64,000 bases of DNA from NCBI RefSeq assembly GCF_001571225.1, contig NZ_BCTJ01000001.1, positions 310,001 to 374,000 of the forward strand. The letters run 5' to 3'. Shown piece after piece: positions 33,939 to 42,493 of the stretch. Position 1 is the first letter of the stretch; each line of letters opens with the position of its first letter. Under the pieces are notes generated by a model. That model worked only from the letters and a program-made list of their open reading frames with translations, was not told where the DNA came from and did not search any database. The DNA comes from Hydrogenophaga palleronii NBRC 102513 (lineage in GTDB: Bacteria; Pseudomonadota; Gammaproteobacteria; Burkholderiales; Burkholderiaceae_C). The position numbers were made by a program, and so were the translations under genes.

Positions 33939-33972
33939 GCAGCCCATGCGCCGACCGGCCCAGGAACGCGCG

Positions 33973-34950
33973 ATGACCCACACCCTGCCCGCGCACGCCA
34001 GGCCCGCCGCCGCACCCGAAGCCGACGCACCGGACAGCGACATTCCCGCCGACTGGCCCGCGCTGTGGCAACAGATGCTGCAGGCGCGCACCGCCACCGG
34101 ACGGGAGCACCACAGCAACCGCGCGCCGGGCGCGCTGCGCTGGGCCGATGGCTTGGGCTGGCAGCCCGGCATGGCCTGCAGCGAACGCAGCGCGGCGCTG
34201 TTCACGCTCTACAAACCCTTGCTCGACGCGCGCCACAGCACGCGCCTGGCGCCCTGGGTGGTGGCCCAGCTCGGCCAGAGCCTGGACGGTTTCGTGGCCA
34301 CCGCCACCGGCGACTCCTACTACGTCAACGGCCCGCACGGCCTGCTGCACCTGCACCGGCTGCGCGCCTTGTGCGACGCGGTGCTGGTGGGCGCGGGCAC
34401 CGTCGCCATCGACAACCCGCAGCTCACCACGCGGCGCGTGCCGGGCCCGCAACCGGTGCGCGTGGTGGTGGACCCGGGCTTGCGGCTGGACGGCCGCTCG
34501 CGCGTGTTCAGCGACGCCCAGGCACCCTCGCTGTGGCTGTGCGACGCGCGGCACGCCAGCGCCGCGCGCGAACGGCTGGACGCCAACGGCCACCGTGAAC
34601 GGGGCCCGCACCCGGCCGAGGTGTTGGCGGTGCCCGGCCTGCTGGACGACGAAGATGCCCGCCGGGGCTACCGGCCCGAACGTGCGGTCGCCGCGCTGGC
34701 GCAGCGCGGCCTGCGCCAGCTGTTCGTGGAAGGTGGCGGCACCACGGTGTCGCGCTTCTTCGGCGCGGGTGCGCTGGACCGGCTGCACCTGGTGGTGGCG
34801 CCGGTGCTGATCGGCCACGGCCGGCGCGGCCTGTGCGTGCCCGCGCACGACGTCATGGCCGACTGCCCGCGCCCACCCACGCGCACGCTGGCGCTGGGCG
34901 AAGACGTGCTCTGGGATCTGGACCTGAGTGCGCGCCGCCAGCTGCGCTGA
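33973..34950 (+). CDS. RibD C-terminal reductase-like protein (no deaminase domain)
   Basis: A 325-residue protein whose residues 85-320 match the NADPH-dependent pyrimidine reductase domain of RibD/dihydrofolate-reductase-like fold. LGQSLDGFVATATGDSYYVNG starts the domain, DAVLVGAGTVAIDNPQLTTR near 137 and LRQLFVEGGGTTVSRFF near 251 are cofactor and substrate segments. The N-terminal 80 residues are not a CMP/dCMP deaminase domain and lack HAE and PCxxC. A free-standing reductase beside a PTPS-fold gene suggests work on a pterin or related diaminopyrimidine rather than riboflavin. ATG 33973 has AGGAA 6 bases upstream; ATG 33946 is an alternative. Confidence 0.8.
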   Translation: MTHTLPAHARPAAAPEADAPDSDIPADWPALWQQMLQARTATGREHHSNRAPGALRWADGLGWQPGMACSERSAALFTLYKPLLDARHSTRLAPWVVAQLGQSLDGFVATATGDSYYVNGPHGLLHLHRLRALCDAVLVGAGTVAIDNPQLTTRRVPGPQPVRVVVDPGLRLDGRSRVFSDAQAPSLWLCDARHASAARERLDANGHRERGPHPAEVLAVPGLLDDEDARRGYRPERAVAALAQRGLRQLFVEGGGTTVSRFFGAGALDRLHLVVAPVLIGHGRRGLCVPAHDVMADCPRPPTRTLALGEDVLWDLDLSARRQLR

Positions 34951-34965: not shown

Positions 34966-35859
34966 TCAGCGCGGCAAGGCCAGCAGATCCACATGGCCGA
35001 CCCGCACCGCGCCGTGCGCGGCATGGGCCAGGCGCCGCTCGCGCCAGGCCAGCACCTCGGCGGCATGGGCCGGCTGCTGTTCGGCCGCGGCGCTGGCCAT
35101 GCCTTCAATGAGCGCGGCCATCAAGGCTGAACCTGCACCGCCGTCACCCGGCACGCGCCAGTCGCTGCTCGCGGTGAACACGCGGTAACCATGGGCAAGC
35201 AAGGCGGCCTGCAGGCTTGGCACCGCCTGCGCGCCCAGGGCCGGGCCGAAACCTTTGTCGCGCCGCTGGTGGGCGGCGAAGCGCGCGCCGACGCTGGCGT
35301 CCAGCGGGTCGCGTGGTGTCCAGGCGTGTTCGCCGTCCACGCTGAGCGTGAACAGCAGGGCCACGCGCGCATCCACCGCCAGCCGCACCAGGCGCTGCAG
35401 CCAGGCCTCGCTGACCAGATCGAGCAGCGCCGAGGCCGTGACCAGCCCGGCCGCGTGCCAGGGCAAGGCTTCGAGGTTCGCGGCCAGATCGACCTGCTGG
35501 CGTTGCACCGTGGCCTTGAAGCCCGGCCCATCAAGCTTCAGCGGATGGTGCAGCGCCTTGCGCGCCGGCGCGAGGCCCAGGCGTTCGGGCCAGCGCTGCA
35601 GCAGCGCGGCGTCGTGGTCCACCACCAGCCATTCCTGCGCACCACTCAGCCGCGGCGCCAACCAGCGCAGATTGGCGCCGGTGCCGCAGGCCAGGTCGAT
35701 CACGCGCCAGGGGGCGGGTGGCGTGGGCCGCCAGGCCTGCAGCCGCGCCAGCAGGCGCAGCCGCTCGGCGGCGTGCTCGCGTGCCCGTGCGTCGAACGGC
35801 TCGCGCTGCGCCAGCCACTCGGCGCTGAAGCCTTCGGCGGTGGAAGGCGCTGTGCTCAT
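34966..35859 (-). CDS. Class I SAM-dependent methyltransferase
   Basis: A 297-residue Rossmann-fold methyltransferase. Motif I is VIDLACGTGAN (near 53), the acidic residue of strand beta2 is in WLVVDHD (near 80), and ALPWHAAGLVTASALLDLVS near 131 corresponds to the motif IV/post-motif region. The acceptor is unknown. It is the last gene of the four-gene minus-strand operon and overlaps the glycosyltransferase gene by 4 bases. It converges on the RibD-like gene with a 15-base gap. Confidence 0.85.
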   Translation of the reverse strand: MSTAPSTAEGFSAEWLAQREPFDARAREHAAERLRLLARLQAWRPTPPAPWRVIDLACGTGANLRWLAPRLSGAQEWLVVDHDAALLQRWPERLGLAPARKALHHPLKLDGPGFKATVQRQQVDLAANLEALPWHAAGLVTASALLDLVSEAWLQRLVRLAVDARVALLFTLSVDGEHAWTPRDPLDASVGARFAAHQRRDKGFGPALGAQAVPSLQAALLAHGYRVFTASSDWRVPGDGGAGSALMAALIEGMASAAAEQQPAHAAEVLAWRERRLAHAAHGAVRVGHVDLLALPR

Positions 35860-36914
35860 GCGTGCAATGCCTCCAGCAGGGCCGCAAACCGCGCGGCCTG
35901 CTGCGGCCAGCCCGGCAGCGCCGCGGCGGCGGTGCGGGCACCCTCGGCCAGGCGCTCGCGCAAGGCCGCGTCACCCAGCACCTGCGCCAGCGCGCCCTGC
36001 AGTGCGGCCACGTTGCCGGCGCGCACCTGCAGGCCGGCACCGGAGGGCAAGGTGTGGGCCAGCGCACCGCCGTCGGTGGTGACCACCGGCAGGCCCTGCG
36101 CCACCGCCTCGGCCACCACCATGCCGTAACCCTCGTACAGGGAAGGCAACACGAACACGTCGGCCGACGCGTAGTGCGCGGGCAGCGCCGTGCCGGGCAC
36201 CTCGCCATGCCAGTGCACGCGCGTGCCCAGTGGTTCGGCCAGCGTGCGCAGGCCGGCGCTGGTGGCGGGGTCGCGCTCGGTGCTGCCCACCAGGTGCAGC
36301 TCCCAGGGCAGGTGCAGCAGCCCGGCCAGGGCCTGCAGCAGCACCGCGTGGCCCTTGCGCGGCGTGAGCGTGGCCACGCACAACAGGCGCAGTGGCGCAC
36401 CGGCCTGCCGCAGCCGGCGCACTTGCGCGACCGCGTCGGTGCCAGGCTCCACCACCGCGATGCGCGCGGCCGGCACCCCCATGGCGGCGACATCGGCCAG
36501 CGTACTGCGGCTGGTCACCACCACCTGCTGCGCCAGCGCCAGCGCCGCGCTTTCGGCGCTGCGCAGTTCCTGCCGTTCGGCCTCCGTCAGGCCGGTTTCC
36601 AGGTGCAGCGGGTGGTGCACCAGGGCGAGCCAGCGCAGGCGCTGGGCGTGTGGCCGCACCACCGCGGCCAGGCAGGCAAAGGCCAGGCCGTCGGCGACCA
36701 CGCGGGTGCCGTCGGGCAGTGCGGCAATGTGTGCGGCGGCGTCGTCGAGATCGCTCTCGTCCGGCCAGGGCCAGGCACCCGTCAGCACGTGGGGCGTGAC
36801 GCACCAGCCGGCCTCGCGCAGGGCCAGGCCCAGGCGGCGGTCGTAGGTGTAGCCGCCGGTGGGCGTGTGCCAGTCGCCGGGCAGCAGGAAGTGGCAGTGG
36901 CGCGGTGCGCTCAT
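35856..36914 (-). CDS. Family 4 glycosyltransferase
   Basis: A 352-residue GT-B fold enzyme of the GT4 type. The N-terminal acceptor domain has GGYTYDRRLG near 20 and the donor domain LLCVATLTPRKGHAVLLQAL near 183. The EX7E motif is in SLYEGYGMVVAEAVAQG near 268-276. GT4 members use nucleotide sugars with retention of configuration. No signal or membrane segment, so the acceptor is cytoplasmic or at the inner leaflet. It starts 15 bases after the PTPS-like gene and overlaps the methyltransferase, suggesting sugar and methyl are added to the same product. Confidence 0.88.
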   Translation of the reverse strand: MSAPRHCHFLLPGDWHTPTGGYTYDRRLGLALREAGWCVTPHVLTGAWPWPDESDLDDAAAHIAALPDGTRVVADGLAFACLAAVVRPHAQRLRWLALVHHPLHLETGLTEAERQELRSAESAALALAQQVVVTSRSTLADVAAMGVPAARIAVVEPGTDAVAQVRRLRQAGAPLRLLCVATLTPRKGHAVLLQALAGLLHLPWELHLVGSTERDPATSAGLRTLAEPLGTRVHWHGEVPGTALPAHYASADVFVLPSLYEGYGMVVAEAVAQGLPVVTTDGGALAHTLPSGAGLQVRAGNVAALQGALAQVLGDAALRERLAEGARTAAAALPGWPQQAARFAALLEALHA

Positions 36915-36929: not shown

Positions 36930-37352
36930 TCAGTCCGGCAGACGGCCTTCGTACGAGGCCCAGGCCACATGCGATTCGTGCAGCGTCACCTTGAGGCTCT
37001 GCAGCCCCGGCGCGTCGGCGCTGGGCAGGGCCTGGGCACCGAGCGCGCCTTCGGCAATGCGCGCGGCGATGTGCTCGAAGATCACGCGCGCCAGAAACTC
37101 GGTGGTGGTGTTGACGCCCTTGAAGTCGGGCATCTCGTCCAGGTTCTGGAAGTTGAGCACCGCCAGCGTGTCGCGCAGCACCTGGGTGGCCAGGCCGATG
37201 TCGACCACGATGCCGTCGCTGTCCAGCGCCCCGCGGCGCAGCTCCAGGTCCACCACGTAGGTGGCGCCGTGCATGCGCTGCGCGGGGCCGAACACCGCGC
37301 CCTGGAAACTGTGGGCGATCATGAAATGGTCTCTGACGTTGACGGCGTACAT
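36930..37352 (-). CDS. PTPS/QueD-fold protein with catalytic residues replaced
   Basis: A 140-residue T-fold protein of the 6-pyruvoyl-tetrahydropterin synthase/6-carboxytetrahydropterin synthase family. The first zinc His (MIAHSF) and the pterin-anchoring Glu (TLHESHVAW) remain. By my alignment to QueD and PTPS the catalytic Cys-x3-HGH reads AQRMHGA, so the Cys is Ala and the third zinc His is Ala. The catalytic Asp-His of LDHxxLD reads LNFQNLD, so those are Asn and Phe. All three members of the Cys-Asp-His triad are therefore absent. It may bind a pterin without the usual chemistry or catalyse something else. It sits between the MDR dehydrogenase (10 bases) and the glycosyltransferase (15 bases). 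Confidence 0.82.
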
Positions 37353-37362
37353 GGTGATGGTC

Positions 37363-38376
37363 TCAGCGAAGTGGGGTTGGGTAATCGATGCGATGGCACA
37401 GCACGTCCGGGGCGCCGCTGCCCGCCAGGCGCTCCAGCACCTGCGGCAGTTCGTGGAACGGCGCGCTGTGGGTGATCAGGCGGTCCAGCACCGGGTCGAC
37501 CAGCATGGACAGTGCCAGTGCCAGCCGCTGGCGGTGGCTCCAGCGTGCGCGCTGGCGTGCGGCTACGTGACCGACCTGCGAGCTCTTGAGCGTGAGGCGC
37601 TGCGAATGAAAGGCCTCGCCCAGCGGCACGTTCACCGCACGGTTGCCGTACCAGCTGAGTTCGATCACCGTGGCCTCGAAGGCCGCCAGGCGCAAGGCGG
37701 TGGCCAGGCCGGCGGCCTGCGCGCTGGTGTGGAACACCAGCTGGGCACCCGGCTCGGCCTGTTCGGGCAATGCGAAGCGGGCACCGAGCGCCTGCGCCAT
37801 CTCGGCGCGCGCCGGGTTCGTGTCCACCACCTGCACCGTGCTCTCGGGCAGGCGGCCGGCGAGCCAGGCCACCAGTAGGCCCAGCGTGCCGCCGCCCACC
37901 ACCGCAAAACGGTCACCCGGGTTGGGTGCGGCATCCCACAGCGCGTTGAGCGCGGTCTCGAGCTGCGCCGCCAGCACGGCGCGCGCGACCGGCACGCCGG
38001 CTGGCAGCGGCAACACCGCCTCGGCCGGCACCTGAAAAAACGTCTGGTGCGGGTGCAGGCAGAACACCTGCTGGCCCAGCAACCCGGCCGGCCCGGCCTC
38101 GACCACACCCACCGCCACGTAACCGTATTTCACCGGCCCGGGAAACTCACCGGCCTGGAACGGCGCACGCATGCGCTCCGCTTCGCTCGCCGGCACCTCG
38201 CCACGGAACACCAGGCCCTCGGTGCCACGGCTCACGCCGCTGTGCAGCGTGCGCACGCGCACCCAGCCGTCGGGCAGCGGCGGCAGGGTTTCTTCCCGGA
38301 GCTCGGCCTGGCCGGGGGCCACCACCCAGCAAGCCGACGCGGGCACGGAAGCGGAAGGGTCGGAAGCAAAAGCCAT
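37363..38376 (-). CDS. Zinc-free MDR-family dehydrogenase
   Basis: A 337-residue medium-chain dehydrogenase/reductase. The cofactor motif is [16 protein letters not shown] near 148-163. The N-terminal catalytic region reads [17 protein letters not shown], a BchC-like pattern with Ser and no catalytic zinc Cys. The structural zinc lobe is missing. It is thus closer to bacteriochlorophyllide-type or quinone-type oxidoreductases than to alcohol dehydrogenases. It is first in the minus-strand operon with the PTPS-like, glycosyltransferase and methyltransferase genes. The start ATG (no strong ribosome site) is in the 114-base divergent gap; longer frames upstream are antisense to the next gene. 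Confidence 0.83.
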
Positions 38377-38490: not shown

Positions 38491-39303
38491 ATGAAAGCCG
38501 TCCGCCCGCCCCCTCTGGCTCCCGATGCCGCGCCGGCCCAGGCCCAGGGCGGCGCGGGTGCAGCCAGCACGCTGCGGCAACACACCGCGCGCGTGCTGCT
38601 GGCAGTGGGTGTGCTGGTGGCGGTGCTGGCCGTGGCCTCGGGCACCGCATTCGGCCTGGGCCTGGACCACGCCGCCAAGGCCTTGCTGGCCTACGGCCTG
38701 GGCGCCAGCCTGGTCTGGCGCGGCCTCGCCACCCACCCGCATGCCCGCTTCGGGCCGGCCAACGGCGTCACCCTGCTGCGGCTGGCCTCGGTGGCCCTGC
38801 TCGCCGCACTGGTGGGCGAGCCCCTGCCCCGCCCGCCGCTGGCCGGCATGCCCGAGGTGGCCTGGTCGCTGGTGCTGATCGCCACCGTCACCGCCCTGTG
38901 TGACGCGGTGGACGGTGCGCTGGCCCGCCGCAGCGGCCTGGCCAGCGCCTTCGGCGCGCGTTTCGACATGGAGACCGACGCCGCCTTCACCCTGGTGCTG
39001 TGCGCCCTGGTGCTGCAGGCCGGACAGGCCGGCCCCTGGGTGCTGGCCTCGGGCCTGATGCGGTATGCCTTCGTGGCAGCGGCACGCGTCTGGCCCTGGC
39101 TGGACGGCGCGCTGCCTCCGAGCAAGCGCCGCCAGACCGTCTGCGTGGTGCAGATCACCACCCTCATCGCCTGCCTCGGCCCCATCGTGCCGCCGCCGCT
39201 GGCAGCCGGGCTGGCGGCCGCCAGCCTCGCCCTGTTGACCCTCTCGTTCGCCATCGACGTGCGGACCCTGGCGCGGCAGCGCCCCACCCCAACGGAGACC
39301 TGA
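38491..39303 (+). CDS. CDP-alcohol phosphotransferase
   Basis: A 270-residue inner-membrane enzyme of the CDP-alcohol phosphatidyltransferase family with about six membrane helices. The complete signature D-x2-DG-x2-AR-x8-G-x3-D-x3-D is present in DAVDGALARR...FGARFDMETD near 134-160. Such enzymes join a CDP-activated alcohol (usually CDP-diacylglycerol) to a second alcohol. The acceptor is unknown. The N-terminal 20 residues are low complexity. ATG 38419 would add 24 poorly conserved codons. It begins the plus-strand half of a divergent locus and ends 3 bases before the yceI-like gene. Confidence 0.83.
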   Translation: MKAVRPPPLAPDAAPAQAQGGAGAASTLRQHTARVLLAVGVLVAVLAVASGTAFGLGLDHAAKALLAYGLGASLVWRGLATHPHARFGPANGVTLLRLASVALLAALVGEPLPRPPLAGMPEVAWSLVLIATVTALCDAVDGALARRSGLASAFGARFDMETDAAFTLVLCALVLQAGQAGPWVLASGLMRYAFVAAARVWPWLDGALPPSKRRQTVCVVQITTLIACLGPIVPPPLAAGLAAASLALLTLSFAIDVRTLARQRPTPTET

Positions 39304-39306
39304 GCC

Positions 39307-39906
39307 ATGCGCACTGCTTTCCTGCTCCCCCTGGCGCTGAGCGCCCAGCTGCTGGCCCTCGCGCCCGCGCAGGCCCAGGCCGCGAAATACGAACTCGACC
39401 CCGACCACATCAGCATCGGTTTCCTGGTCGACCACATCGGTTACGCCAAGGTGCTGGGCATGTTCCGCTCGGCGCGCGGCAGCTACCGCTTCGACGAGGC
39501 CACGGCCACGCTGACGGAGGTGCGCATCGAAGTGGAGACCGCCAGCGTGTTCAGCAACCAGCGCAAGCGCGACGAACACCTGAAGGGGCCGGACTTCCTC
39601 AACAGCGGCGAGTTTCCGCGCATGGTGTTCACCGCCAGTAGCGCCAAACGCACCAGCGATCGCCAGTTTGAAATCCAGGGCCAGCTGGAGCTGCTGGGCA
39701 AAAGCCAGCCGCTCACCCTGCAGGCCACCTGGAACAAGAGCGCCGAATCGCCCATGGGCGGCCCGCTGCGCAAGCCCTATGTGATGGGCGTGTCGGCGCG
39801 TGGCAGCTTCAAGCGCAGCGCCTACGGCATGGCTTACGGCGTGGGCAATGGCTGGGTTGGCGACGAGGTGCCGCTGATCATCGAGTTCGAAGCGGTGCGC
39901 CAGTGA
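39307..39906 (+). CDS. YceI-family periplasmic lipid-binding protein
   Basis: A 199-residue exported protein with a signal peptide cleaved after AQAQA (near residue 25). The mature domain is a YceI lipocalin-like barrel: YELDPDHISIGFLVDHIGYA opens it, VETASVFSNQRKRDEHLKGPDF lies near 80 and MVFTASSAKRTSDRQ near 105. YceI proteins bind polyisoprenoids or similar lipids in a hydrophobic tunnel. Its position behind a CDP-alcohol phosphotransferase and before a membrane sulfatase-family enzyme suggests it carries the lipid product through the periplasm. Length is typical. Confidence 0.88.
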   Translation: MRTAFLLPLALSAQLLALAPAQAQAAKYELDPDHISIGFLVDHIGYAKVLGMFRSARGSYRFDEATATLTEVRIEVETASVFSNQRKRDEHLKGPDFLNSGEFPRMVFTASSAKRTSDRQFEIQGQLELLGKSQPLTLQATWNKSAESPMGGPLRKPYVMGVSARGSFKRSAYGMAYGVGNGWVGDEVPLIIEFEAVRQ

Positions 39907-39937: not shown

Positions 39938-41674
39938 TTGAGCCGAGCCACCCTGCCCCAGCCGGCACCCACGCGGCGCGAACCGCCGCTGGCCGGCTGG
40001 CTGCTGCGCTTCGGGCTGGCGTTCGGGCTGCTCAACACACTGTGGACTTTCGAGAACCGCTGGCCGGGTTTCGGCGTGGCCTACATGCCGCGCCTGTCGT
40101 TTGAACTCTGCCTGGCGGTGGCGGCGCTCACAGCGTGGGTCGCCTGGCGCGGTGCGCTGTCGAAGCGCGCACACCATGTGCTGAGCGGCCTGTTCGTGGC
40201 CCTGGTGCTGGTGCGTTATGCCAACGTGACCGCGCCCGCGGTGCTAGGGCGCCCGGTCAACCTGTACTGGGACGGCCGCCACGCCGCCCAGCTGCTGCGT
40301 GTGGCCGTGCACGACCTGCCGGGCTGGCAGCGGTTGGCCGCGTTGCTGGCGCTGCTGCTGGGCACCGCCCTGCTGTGGTGGCTGGTCCTCAGTGCCATCC
40401 GTTGCCTGGCGCAGGCCGCGAGCTGGCCACGCCCGCGGCCCTGGTTGTGGCTGGGCACGGCAGCGCTCGCGCTGAGTTTTGTCGCCTACGTGCCGGGCCA
40501 GCGCGACACTCGCTGGTTCTTCTCCTTGCCGCTGGCGCCCACCCTGCTGCACCAGGGCCAGCTGCTGGCGCGGGTGTGGTGGCCGGGCTCGGCGGTGGCG
40601 GTGCTCGGCACCGGCCCGGCGTTCGACGGCGACCTCTCCGGCCTGCGCACGGCACAAGGGCCCGTCGACGTGTTGCTGGTGTTTGCCGAGTCCTACGGCA
40701 TGGCCAGTTTCGACCGGCCCGAGCAGGCCGAGGCCCTGGCCGCACCACGCGCGGCGCTGGCCCAGGCCATCGCGGCCGGCGGGCGCCATGTGGTCTCGGG
40801 GCGGGTGAATGCGCCGACCTTTGGCGGTGCGTCCTGGTTGTCTCATGCCAGCCTGCTGGCCGGCCTGGACATCCAGGACCCGGCCGCACACGACCTGCTG
40901 CTGACCAGCGAACGGCCCACACTGGTGCGGCACTTTGCGCGCCACGGCTACCGCACGGTGGGCTGGATGCCGGGCCTCAAACGGCCCTGGCCCGAAGGCG
41001 CCTTCTACGGTTTTGACCGGCTGGCGGACGATGCCGGCATCGGCTACAGCGGGCCCGACTTCGGCTACTGGCGCATTCCCGACCAGGCCTCCATGGCCTT
41101 GCTGCATGCGCAGGAATTGCAGCGCGGAGAAGGCCGTGCTTCACACATGCCGAGGTTCGTGGTGTTCGCCACCACCAGCACCCACGCGCCCTTCCACCCG
41201 CTCGCCCCGTTCAGCAGCGACTGGACACGCCTGCTGGGCCCCCAGGCCTACAGCGCGGCGCAGGCCGAGGCAGCGCTGGCCGCGCCGCGTGCGCTGCAGC
41301 AGCCGGTGCCGCTGTACCTGGAGAGCCAACGTTACCAATACGCCTGGTGGACCGATTACCTGCGGCAGCTCGCGCCGCACCCGCTGGTGATGGTGGTGGT
41401 GGGTGACCACCAGCCAGCCGCCCTGGTGAGTGGCCAGGGCGCGACCTGGGACGTGCCGGTGCACGTGGTGAGCGACGACCCCGCCCTGCTGCAGCGTCTG
41501 CTCGGCAACGGCTTCGTGCCGGGCATCACACCGCCAGCGCACTGCGTGGGGCCGATGCACCAGCTGACCCGGGTGCTGCTGCACGCCTTCGACAGCTCCG
41601 ATGGCCACAGCGGCCCGCCGATGGAACACGCCGGCCTGCCGGCATCAAGCCCGGTGCAGGGCGGCGGCTCATGA
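39938..41674 (+). CDS. Membrane sulfatase-family transferase (LtaS/EptA-like)
   Basis: A 578-residue protein with about five N-terminal membrane helices (to about residue 200) and a periplasmic alkaline-phosphatase-superfamily domain. VLLVFAESYGMASF near 246 contributes the first metal Glu. The nucleophile region is PTFGGASWLSHAS near 292, where a Thr or Ser would be the nucleophile. VVVGDHQPAALV near 486 supplies the Asp-His metal ligands. Family members move phosphoglycerol or phosphoethanolamine onto glycans or lipids. The start is TTG since no ATG fits. Its 3-prime end overlaps the convergent FkbM methyltransferase gene by 6 bases. Confidence 0.78.
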   Translation: MSRATLPQPAPTRREPPLAGWLLRFGLAFGLLNTLWTFENRWPGFGVAYMPRLSFELCLAVAALTAWVAWRGALSKRAHHVLSGLFVALVLVRYANVTAPAVLGRPVNLYWDGRHAAQLLRVAVHDLPGWQRLAALLALLLGTALLWWLVLSAIRCLAQAASWPRPRPWLWLGTAALALSFVAYVPGQRDTRWFFSLPLAPTLLHQGQLLARVWWPGSAVAVLGTGPAFDGDLSGLRTAQGPVDVLLVFAESYGMASFDRPEQAEALAAPRAALAQAIAAGGRHVVSGRVNAPTFGGASWLSHASLLAGLDIQDPAAHDLLLTSERPTLVRHFARHGYRTVGWMPGLKRPWPEGAFYGFDRLADDAGIGYSGPDFGYWRIPDQASMALLHAQELQRGEGRASHMPRFVVFATTSTHAPFHPLAPFSSDWTRLLGPQAYSAAQAEAALAAPRALQQPVPLYLESQRYQYAWWTDYLRQLAPHPLVMVVVGDHQPAALVSGQGATWDVPVHVVSDDPALLQRLLGNGFVPGITPPAHCVGPMHQLTRVLLHAFDSSDGHSGPPMEHAGLPASSPVQGGGS

Positions 41675-42451
41675 GGGCGGGCAACGCCAGGCGTGCACGT
41701 CGCCCGAAGGCGCGTTCTGCGGCAAGGCCTGCAGCCAGGCGCACATCGCCACCGCGTCTTCGCCCTCGGGCCGCAGCAGGCGCTGCCGTTCGCCCAGCGA
41801 GACGGCGTAGCGGTAGGCACCCGCGCCGGCCTGCGACTCCAGCCGTTCGACGCAGCCCAGCGCCACGTCGCGCACCGCCGGCACGAACTCGAACGACAAC
41901 GCCGGCAGCGGCTGGCTCAGGCCGAGCAGCACCTCCAGCTCGAAACCTTCGACGTCGATCTTCACGAAGTCGGGCACGCCGTGTTGTGCGATCAGTGCGT
42001 CCAGTGTGTTCACTGACACCAGTGGCCCGTGCTGCCAGCGCACGCGGCGAAACGCGGGGTCGGCACCGGCGCGTCGCACGAAGTCGTCGGACAGCGTGGC
42101 CACAGTGGGCGTGCGCGGGCTGGCCAGCAGGCGGGCCTGGCCGACCGCGCGGCCCAGTGCCTGCGGCAACACGGTGACTTGTGCGTCGCCGCCGAAACGC
42201 TTCTGCAGACGCTGGACGAACACCGGCTGCGGCTCCAGCGCAACCACGCGCGCACCGAGCTGGCGAAACGCCGCCACGCGGTTGCCCTCGTGCGCGCCGA
42301 CATCAAAGGCCAGGCCACCCACGGGCACAAAGCGGCGGTAGAAACGCCGCAACTGCGCCGCGCGCCAGGGAATGGCGCGGTAGACCAGCCAGGAGCGCCA
42401 CACGCCCAGCCGCTGGTCCAGGCGCTGCCAGAAAGGGGTGTCGGGGTGCAT
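41669..42451 (-). CDS. FkbM-family methyltransferase
   Basis: A 260-residue SAM-dependent methyltransferase of the FkbM family, generally acting on sugar or polyketide hydroxyls. Motif I is LAFDVGAHEGNRVAAF near 56, the acidic loop VVALEPQPVF near 78, and the FkbM hallmark is VNTLDALI...PDFVKIDVEGFELEVL near 155-180. It converges on the sulfatase-family gene and could add the last modification to a locus product, but it is transcribed alone. Start at ATG 42451; an earlier in-frame ATG lies 9 codons upstream. Confidence 0.85.
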   Translation of the reverse strand: MHPDTPFWQRLDQRLGVWRSWLVYRAIPWRAAQLRRFYRRFVPVGGLAFDVGAHEGNRVAAFRQLGARVVALEPQPVFVQRLQKRFGGDAQVTVLPQALGRAVGQARLLASPRTPTVATLSDDFVRRAGADPAFRRVRWQHGPLVSVNTLDALIAQHGVPDFVKIDVEGFELEVLLGLSQPLPALSFEFVPAVRDVALGCVERLESQAGAGAYRYAVSLGERQRLLRPEGEDAVAMCAWLQALPQNAPSGDVHAWRCPPS

Positions 42452-42493
42452 GGCCGCATTGTGCGGCGCGGGCCGCACGCGGTTGCGGTGAAG

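What the first reader, a model, noticed from the sequence alone, without database searches (positions are those of the whole stretch)
36930..37352. PTPS/QueD-fold protein stripped of its catalytic triad in a biosynthetic operon
Aligned by eye to QueD and PTPS, Cys becomes Ala, the third zinc His becomes Ala, and the Asp-His pair becomes Asn-Phe. The pterin-anchoring Glu and first His stay. A dead or repurposed pterin-binding fold, conserved enough to keep its barrel and placed in an operon, suggests a new reaction or a pterin sensor/carrier.
Basis: partly seen in the sequence, partly recalled or inferred. Interest (0 to 1): 0.75.

Follow-up and report, generated by a model that had tools for sequence, protein, structure and literature searches.

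The report
Zinc-less PTPS-fold protein in conserved cassette
The gene encodes a pterin-enzyme fold that has lost its zinc and catalytic residues; a solved protein of the same kind (SCO6650) was already known, but here it sits in a widely conserved, seemingly uncharacterised gene cassette that appears to start from the same GTP-derived pyrimidines as vitamin B2.

Summary
The 140-aa ORF at 36930-37352 (-) is a PTPS/QueD-fold protein (Pfam PTPS, 85 bits). It has no cysteine: the Cys site is Ala24, the third zinc His is Ala30 and the Asp-His pair is Asn67-Phe68; His14, His28, Glu85 and Glu126 stay. Ala24, Ala30 and the four retained residues are identical in 90 of 90 relatives examined. As a protein type it is not new: the nearest solved structure is SCO6650 of Streptomyces coelicolor (3d7j; 61% identity, TM 0.91), which I recall was published in 2008 as zinc-less, triad-less and without PTPS activity. 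What seems under-described is the context. Dehydrogenase > PTPS-like > GT4 glycosyltransferase > methyltransferase keep order and strand in 69 of 71 loci with room for them, and recur in Actinobacteria and haloarchaea. A RibD-type reductase is close by in most proteobacterial loci; GTP cyclohydrolase II and creatininase-family genes join in a minority. Best reading: a metal-independent T-fold enzyme in an uncharacterised pathway branching from the first GTP-derived pyrimidines of riboflavin synthesis, perhaps towards a glycosylated, lipid-linked product. 'Dead' is unlikely; the reaction is unknown.

The parts
36930..37352 (-). PTPS/QueD-fold protein of the SCO6650 type, 140 aa, no Cys, HGAT in place of HGH
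   Evidence: Pfam PTPS 85.3 bits; 3d7j best structure; residues fixed in 90 of 90 rows
37363..38370 (-). MDR-type dehydrogenase, distantly like BchC (start codon not certain)
   Evidence: ADH_zinc_N 22.6 bits, below cut-off; BchC 47.8 bits, below cut-off; found in 76 of 80 loci
35856..36914 (-). GT4-type glycosyltransferase
   Evidence: Glycos_transf_1 105 bits; in 80 of 80 loci
34966..35859 (-). Methyltransferase-like protein
   Evidence: Methyltransf_25 23.5 bits, below its cut-off of 27; in 78 of 80 loci
33970..34950 (+). RibD C-terminal-type reductase, convergent with the operon (ORF open from 33745; start inferred)
   Evidence: RibD_C 130 bits; in 68 of 80 loci
38491..39303 (+). CDP-alcohol phosphatidyltransferase family protein (ORF open from 38047; start inferred)
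   Evidence: PF01066 52 bits; in 56 of 80 loci
39307..39906 (+). YceI family protein, frequent neighbour
   Evidence: PF04264 124 bits; in 39 of 80 loci
39938..41674 (+). Sulfatase-like membrane protein, frequent neighbour, membership in the module uncertain
   Evidence: PF00884 19.4 bits, below cut-off; in 42 of 80 loci
41669..42478 (-). FkbM-type methyltransferase, occasional neighbour
   Evidence: PF05050 51 bits; in 21 of 80 loci

Best explanation
The gene is a SCO6650-type member of the PTPS/COG0720 T-fold family. SHOWN by sequence: the fold, the loss of the Cys, of the third zinc His and of the Asp-His pair, a fixed new set of invariant residues, and a conserved cassette. INFERRED: GTP is opened by GTP cyclohydrolase II (a cassette copy in a minority of loci, the housekeeping enzyme in this genome) and, where needed, deformylated by a creatininase-family formamidase to 2,5-diamino-6-ribosylamino-4(3H)-pyrimidinone 5'-phosphate; the RibD-type enzyme reduces this to the ribitylamino compound; the PTPS-like protein holds that pyrimidine, or a pteridine made from it, through Thr83/Glu85/Glu126 and, without zinc, catalyses a ring-forming or side-chain step (as metal-free T-fold enzymes such as dihydroneopterin aldolase do), using the clade's own invariant residues (candidates H9, H14, H28, D72, H128); dehydrogenase, glycosyltransferase and methyltransferase then tailor the product. 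Attachment to a lipid by the CDP-alcohol phosphatidyltransferase is a further, weaker inference.
For: Nearest structure 3d7j. 33 invariant positions in 90 rows, including anchoring-type T83, E85, E126 and new H9, H128, D72. Dehydrogenase > PTPS > GT4 > methyltransferase on one strand in 69 of 71 loci with room; RibD-type gene in 58 of 61 loci with 9 kb downstream, always on the opposite strand. The RibD-type protein of the Halomonas cassette is closest to solved 2,5-diamino-6-ribosylamino-4(3H)-pyrimidinone 5'-phosphate reductases. GCHII in 15 and creatininase in 13 of 80 loci; creatininase-family formamidases make this same diaminopyrimidine in Sinorhizobium and Brucella (PMC9478397, abstract and passages). 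The core recurs in Streptomyces, Microbacterium, Rhizobiaceae, Methylosinus, Thiodictyon and three haloarchaea, and the module is kept in two genomes of 1.0-1.1 Mb.
Against: No activity, ligand or product is known. 65 of 80 loci show no GCHII and 67 of 80 no creatininase within the DNA held (some loci are cut short). No RibD-type match was found in the Streptomyces locus L160 or in the three haloarchaeal loci. The formyl-retaining Met variant of GCHII occurs only in the Streptomyces copy; 19 of 20 copies have Tyr, so the creatininase is not explained there. A carrier would look the same. Conservation was judged on rows chosen for similarity.
Confidence: 0.5

Rival explanations
1. A non-catalytic pterin- or pyrimidine-binding protein: a carrier, scaffold or sensor that keeps the anchoring residues but performs no chemistry and hands an intermediate to the neighbouring enzymes.
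For: All three known catalytic residues and one zinc ligand are gone in 90 of 90 rows (N67 in 89) while the anchoring-type residues stay.
Against: Polar residues with no counterpart among the known catalytic ones (H9, D72, H128) are just as invariant; metal-free T-fold enzymes exist (recalled).
Confidence: 0.22
2. It supplies the QueD (or a related pterin) step for queuosine in genomes that lack a canonical QueD.
For: Nine of ten clade genomes in the family sample have no other PTPS match, and nine of ten have a strong QueC match.
Against: 57 of 89 genomes with no PTPS match at all also have strong QueC, including the same-genus G114, so a missing QueD does not depend on this gene; Cys, Asp-His and the zinc triad are lost; the neighbours are not queuosine genes; QueC lies on another contig here.
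Confidence: 0.07
3. It is an unusual zinc-dependent PTPS-type enzyme in which H14, H28 and another residue still bind a metal.
For: Two of three zinc histidines are invariant (90 of 90) and haloarchaeal cassette members keep the full HxH pair.
Against: SCO6650 was, as I recall, reported without zinc; no third ligand is evident from the alignment; coordinates could not be inspected.
Confidence: 0.1
4. A decaying, functionless relic of a PTPS gene.
For: Loss of known catalytic residues only.
Against: 33 invariant positions in 90 rows, 575 confirmed relatives, retention in 1.0-1.1 Mb genomes.
Confidence: 0.02

Closest known systems
SCO6650 of Streptomyces coelicolor (PDB 3d7j)
   Same: Same fold and length, 61% identity over 137 columns, TM 0.91; same HGAT and no-Cys pattern (alignment)
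   Different: Different phylum; I did not see the neighbourhood of SCO6650 itself. A related Streptomyces plasmid locus (L160) has the core with GCHII and creatininase but no RibD match
QueD / PTPS-I, PTPS-II, PTPS-III (COG0720)
   Same: T-fold, first two zinc-type His, anchoring Glu
   Different: Cys, third His and Asp-His lost; about 20% identity, TMq about 0.7 to E. coli QueD; different neighbours
Early archaeal/rhizobial riboflavin route (formamidase ArfB or BrbF, then pyrimidine reductase)
   Same: Creatininase-family and RibD-type reductase genes, GCHII in some loci (PMC9478397)
   Different: PTPS-like, dehydrogenase, GT4, methyltransferase and CDP-alcohol genes are extra; the window genome has a separate RibD-like match about 1.5 kb from its only GCHII domain on another contig
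Bacterial pterin glycosides such as cyanopterin (recalled)
   Same: Would also need a glycosyltransferase and a methyltransferase on a pterin
   Different: Those start from GTP cyclohydrolase I; here the linked genes are of the GCHII/RibD type. No sequence comparison was made

Membership tests
PTPS/COG0720 fold family (PF01242) | Profile match above the curated cut-off | tested here: met
   85.3 bits against 22.4; 55 of 55 members of A3 match
PTPS/COG0720 fold family (PF01242) | PTPS T-fold | tested here: met
   AlphaFold2 pLDDT 95.8; Foldseek to 3d7j, QueD, PTPS
QueD / PTPS-I | CxxxHGH motif and Asp-His pair | tested here: not met
   A24, HGAT, N67-F68; invariant or nearly so in 90 rows; motif as given in PMC5041015 section 5
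QueD / PTPS-I | NCBI QueD equivalog cut-off | tested here: not met
   42.9 bits against 89.25
QueD / PTPS-I | Makes 6-carboxytetrahydropterin | not testable with these tools
   needs an assay
PTPS-II and PTPS-III | CxxxxxHGH or ExxHGH motif | tested here: not met
   sequence [10 protein letters not shown]; motifs from PMC5041015
SCO6650-type subfamily | Close full-length similarity to SCO6650/3d7j | tested here: met
   E 1.9e-63 over profile positions 1-131; 61% identity
SCO6650-type subfamily | No zinc, no PTPS activity (recalled for SCO6650) | not testable with these tools
   needs purified protein
PTPS-V (function unclear in PMC5041015) | Its signature motif | not tested
   the motif was not given in the text I read
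Anti-phage defence systems | PADLOC-DB profile match | tested here: not met
   five cassette proteins, one weak match only (mad2, 17.2 bits, 39 residues of the methyltransferase-like protein)

The most novel reading that the evidence does not exclude
The cassette makes an undescribed GTP-derived pteridine or ribitylaminopyrimidine cofactor, glycosylated, methylated and joined to a membrane lipid by the CDP-alcohol phosphatidyltransferase, made by bacteria of several phyla and by haloarchaea and kept even in genomes of about 1 Mb, with the zinc-less T-fold protein catalysing its committed step by a metal-free mechanism new to the PTPS family.
Probability: 0.25. Interest if true: 0.88.

Novelty: new member of a known kind. 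Interest (0 to 1): 0.5.

Why it matters
The nearest relative has had a structure since 2008 (PDB release date), and I found no function for it in the open library (subscription papers are not held). The plasmid copies that carry a product name are annotated as 6-carboxytetrahydropterin or 6-pyruvoyl tetrahydropterin synthase, names that their residues contradict for the bacterial ones. The cassette offers a concrete substrate guess, the first pyrimidines of riboflavin synthesis, and could turn an orphan structure into an assignable enzyme and perhaps reveal a new cofactor.

Tried and rejected
Queuosine role: PTPS and QueC matches counted in the same 200 family genomes. A missing QueD is common without this gene, so the role was not adopted, but the anti-correlation (9 of 10) is real and reported. 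Defence role: PADLOC, nothing useful. Dying gene: rejected on invariance. A first count of the CDP-alcohol gene (66 of 80) was inflated by matches antisense to the dehydrogenase, because my query ORF was too long; recounted as 56 of 80. A first family alignment held one sequence read on the wrong strand and was replaced. GCHII residue test: I expected the Met variant throughout; only the Streptomyces copy has it and 19 of 20 have Tyr. Of those 20, L033 and L057 are the same contig, and L069 and L113 carry the gene away from the RibD position. The canonical comparison caught only 4 usable rows, so the 50 rows are used for HGH. The tree has long branches; the joining of haloarchaeal and bacterial cassette rows (95/91) may be partly long-branch attraction. 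PTPS is the best-conserved of five cassette genes in 45 of 67 loci, but loci were picked by PTPS similarity, so this is not used as evidence. Coordinates of 3d7j or of the model could not be inspected; the pocket and metal site were judged by alignment only.

Full report
Observation. The ORF at 36930-37352 on the minus strand encodes 140 residues and matches Pfam PTPS with 85.3 bits, while NCBI's QueD equivalog model stays below its cut-off (42.9 against 89.25 bits). The profile alignment to E. coli QueD pairs Ala24 with the catalytic Cys site, His28 and Ala30 with the two histidines of HGH, and Asn67-Phe68 with Asp-His. His14 and Glu126 stay. The protein has no cysteine.

More than chance. 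In 200 genomes of the family, 40 match; ten of these (window included) are close relatives (55-77% identity for the other nine), the rest weak matches. Over 90 rows Ala24, Ala30, His14, His28, Glu85, Glu126 and His128 never vary and Asn67 varies once; 33 positions are invariant. At least two loci occur twice in this set. In a class-wide sample 13 of 274 genomes match at E 1e-15 or better: eleven read HGAT, one (G452) HGTT, and one (G345) is a canonical HGH protein. The loss is thus fixed in the bacterial clade, and new residues are as strictly kept as the old anchoring ones.

What it is. Profile and fold searches agree on SCO6650, PDB 3d7j, as the nearest solved protein (E 1.9e-63; TMq 0.91, 61% identity; model pLDDT 95.8). 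Other PTPS and QueD structures are much further off (best TMq about 0.74, about 20% identity). From memory, the 2008 Acta Crystallographica F paper reported a hexameric T-fold lacking zinc and the catalytic triad, without PTPS activity, with pterin-binding residues kept and function unknown. That paper is not held (look-ups failed), so this rests on recall; the PDB title and release date are. At the level of the protein, the finding is a rediscovery. In the tree the ten bacterial rows lie on one side of a branch (99/97) and, with the caveat of long branches, next to three haloarchaeal cassette members (95/91).

The cassette. In the window the minus-strand order is dehydrogenase (37363-38370), PTPS-like, GT4 glycosyltransferase (35856-36914), methyltransferase-like protein (34966-35859). 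A RibD-type reductase (to 34950, plus strand) converges on it; on the other side lie a CDP-alcohol phosphatidyltransferase and a YceI protein. Of the nine other family loci, all nine have dehydrogenase, PTPS and GT4 and eight have methyltransferase and RibD; the ninth is cut by its contig end. Of 80 loci, GT4 is found in 80, methyltransferase in 78, dehydrogenase in 76, RibD in 68, CDP-alcohol gene in 56, sulfatase-like in 42, YceI in 39, FkbM-type methyltransferase in 21, GCHII in 15, creatininase in 13 and an LPG-synthase-TM-like gene in 5 with a Halomonas query. Of 71 loci with room, 69 keep dehydrogenase > PTPS > GT4 > methyltransferase on one strand; L103 and L104 lack a detectable dehydrogenase. 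Of 61 with 9 kb downstream, 58 have the RibD-type gene, all on the opposite strand, 55 within 4 kb.

Beyond proteobacteria. Nine plasmid loci were opened of 24 records found. Eight have the core, including Streptomyces fungicidicus, Microbacterium, Peteryoungia, Methylosinus trichosporium OB3b, Thiodictyon and three haloarchaea; Streptomyces anthocyanicus (L167) has the PTPS-like gene alone. A RibD-type match is found in Thiodictyon, Peteryoungia, Methylosinus and Microbacterium, but not in S. fungicidicus or the three haloarchaea within the DNA held; a CDP-alcohol gene is found in five of the nine. The window's dehydrogenase and GT4 match their haloarchaeal counterparts in three of three loci, its methyltransferase in two of three. 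The haloarchaeal PTPS-like proteins are 30-32% identical to the window's, keep an HSH pair and have Glu at the Cys column; so the cassette exists both with and without the zinc motif.

Which pathway. The RibD-type protein of a Halomonas cassette is closest to solved 2,5-diamino-6-ribosylamino-4(3H)-pyrimidinone 5'-phosphate reductases. The window's genome has a separate RibD-like match about 1.5 kb from its only GCHII domain on another contig, so the cassette copy is presumably dedicated. A creatininase-family protein was shown in 2022 to be a formamidase making this same diaminopyrimidine (PMC9478397; abstract and passages read). In the Streptomyces cassette the GCHII has Met where E. coli RibA has the Tyr of its RAY motif, the change that, as I recall, makes SCO6655 stop at the formylated intermediate; 19 of 20 copies keep Tyr, so the creatininase is not explained there. 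The common denominator is entry from GTP through the first riboflavin intermediates. What follows is not shown. That the PTPS-like protein acts on a pyrimidine or pteridine is inferred from its fold, the kept Thr83/Glu85/Glu126 (role recalled from rat PTPS) and the neighbours; that it is catalytic is inferred from the new invariant residues.

Importance to the cell. Two genomes of 1.0-1.1 Mb (96-99% complete) keep YceI, CDP-alcohol, dehydrogenase, PTPS-like, GT4, methyltransferase, LPG-synthase-TM-like and RibD genes side by side. Retention in such small genomes argues against a dispensable or dead gene and suggests that the lipid-type genes belong to the module.

Against my reading. No activity or product is known; most loci lack GCHII and creatininase; the RibD gene is not seen in every lineage; a carrier would look the same; and the queuosine rival has an anti-correlation behind it (nine of ten clade genomes have no other PTPS match), though 57 of 89 genomes without any PTPS match also have strong QueC (strong meaning E below 1e-15).

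Literature. PMC5041015 (section 5 and passages read) lists COG0720 subfamilies I-VI and calls PTPS-V unclear; I could not tell whether this clade is PTPS-V. PMC3509567 was read in passages only. Nine searches of the open library found nothing on the function of SCO6650 or on the cassette; subscription papers are not covered.

Verdict. Observation confirmed; protein type already known from SCO6650; 'dead' unlikely; a conserved, apparently uncharacterised cassette makes it a good target. Interest 0.5.

Noticed in passing
L189-L192 (family genomes G057, G103, G007, G062); more: Many family genomes carry a 365-450 aa ORF with two or three PTPS domains; in the four read, one central domain has the full CxxxHGH motif and the outer ones are altered. 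In several (G057, G073, G089, G103, G137, G179) it lies within about 1 kb of queC.
   Followed up: partly
200 family genomes: 57 of 89 genomes with no PTPS match at E 0.001 still have a strong QueC match, so how they make the QueD product is open; of 101 genomes with a non-clade PTPS, 100 have strong QueC.
   Followed up: partly
L165, L166, L168 (haloarchaeal plasmids): The same dehydrogenase-PTPS-GT4-methyltransferase order in haloarchaea, with an HSH pair and Glu at the Cys column: a possible zinc-bearing version of the same step.
   Followed up: partly
window 37363-38370 (-): The dehydrogenase annotated elsewhere as zinc-binding reads SGVSRGTE and KYGY where alcohol dehydrogenases usually carry zinc ligands (usual motifs recalled), so it too may be zinc-free.
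   Followed up: no
L161 and L162: A cytochrome b gene sits inside or beside the cassette in Thiodictyon and Peteryoungia; with YceI this hints at a membrane redox link.
   Followed up: no
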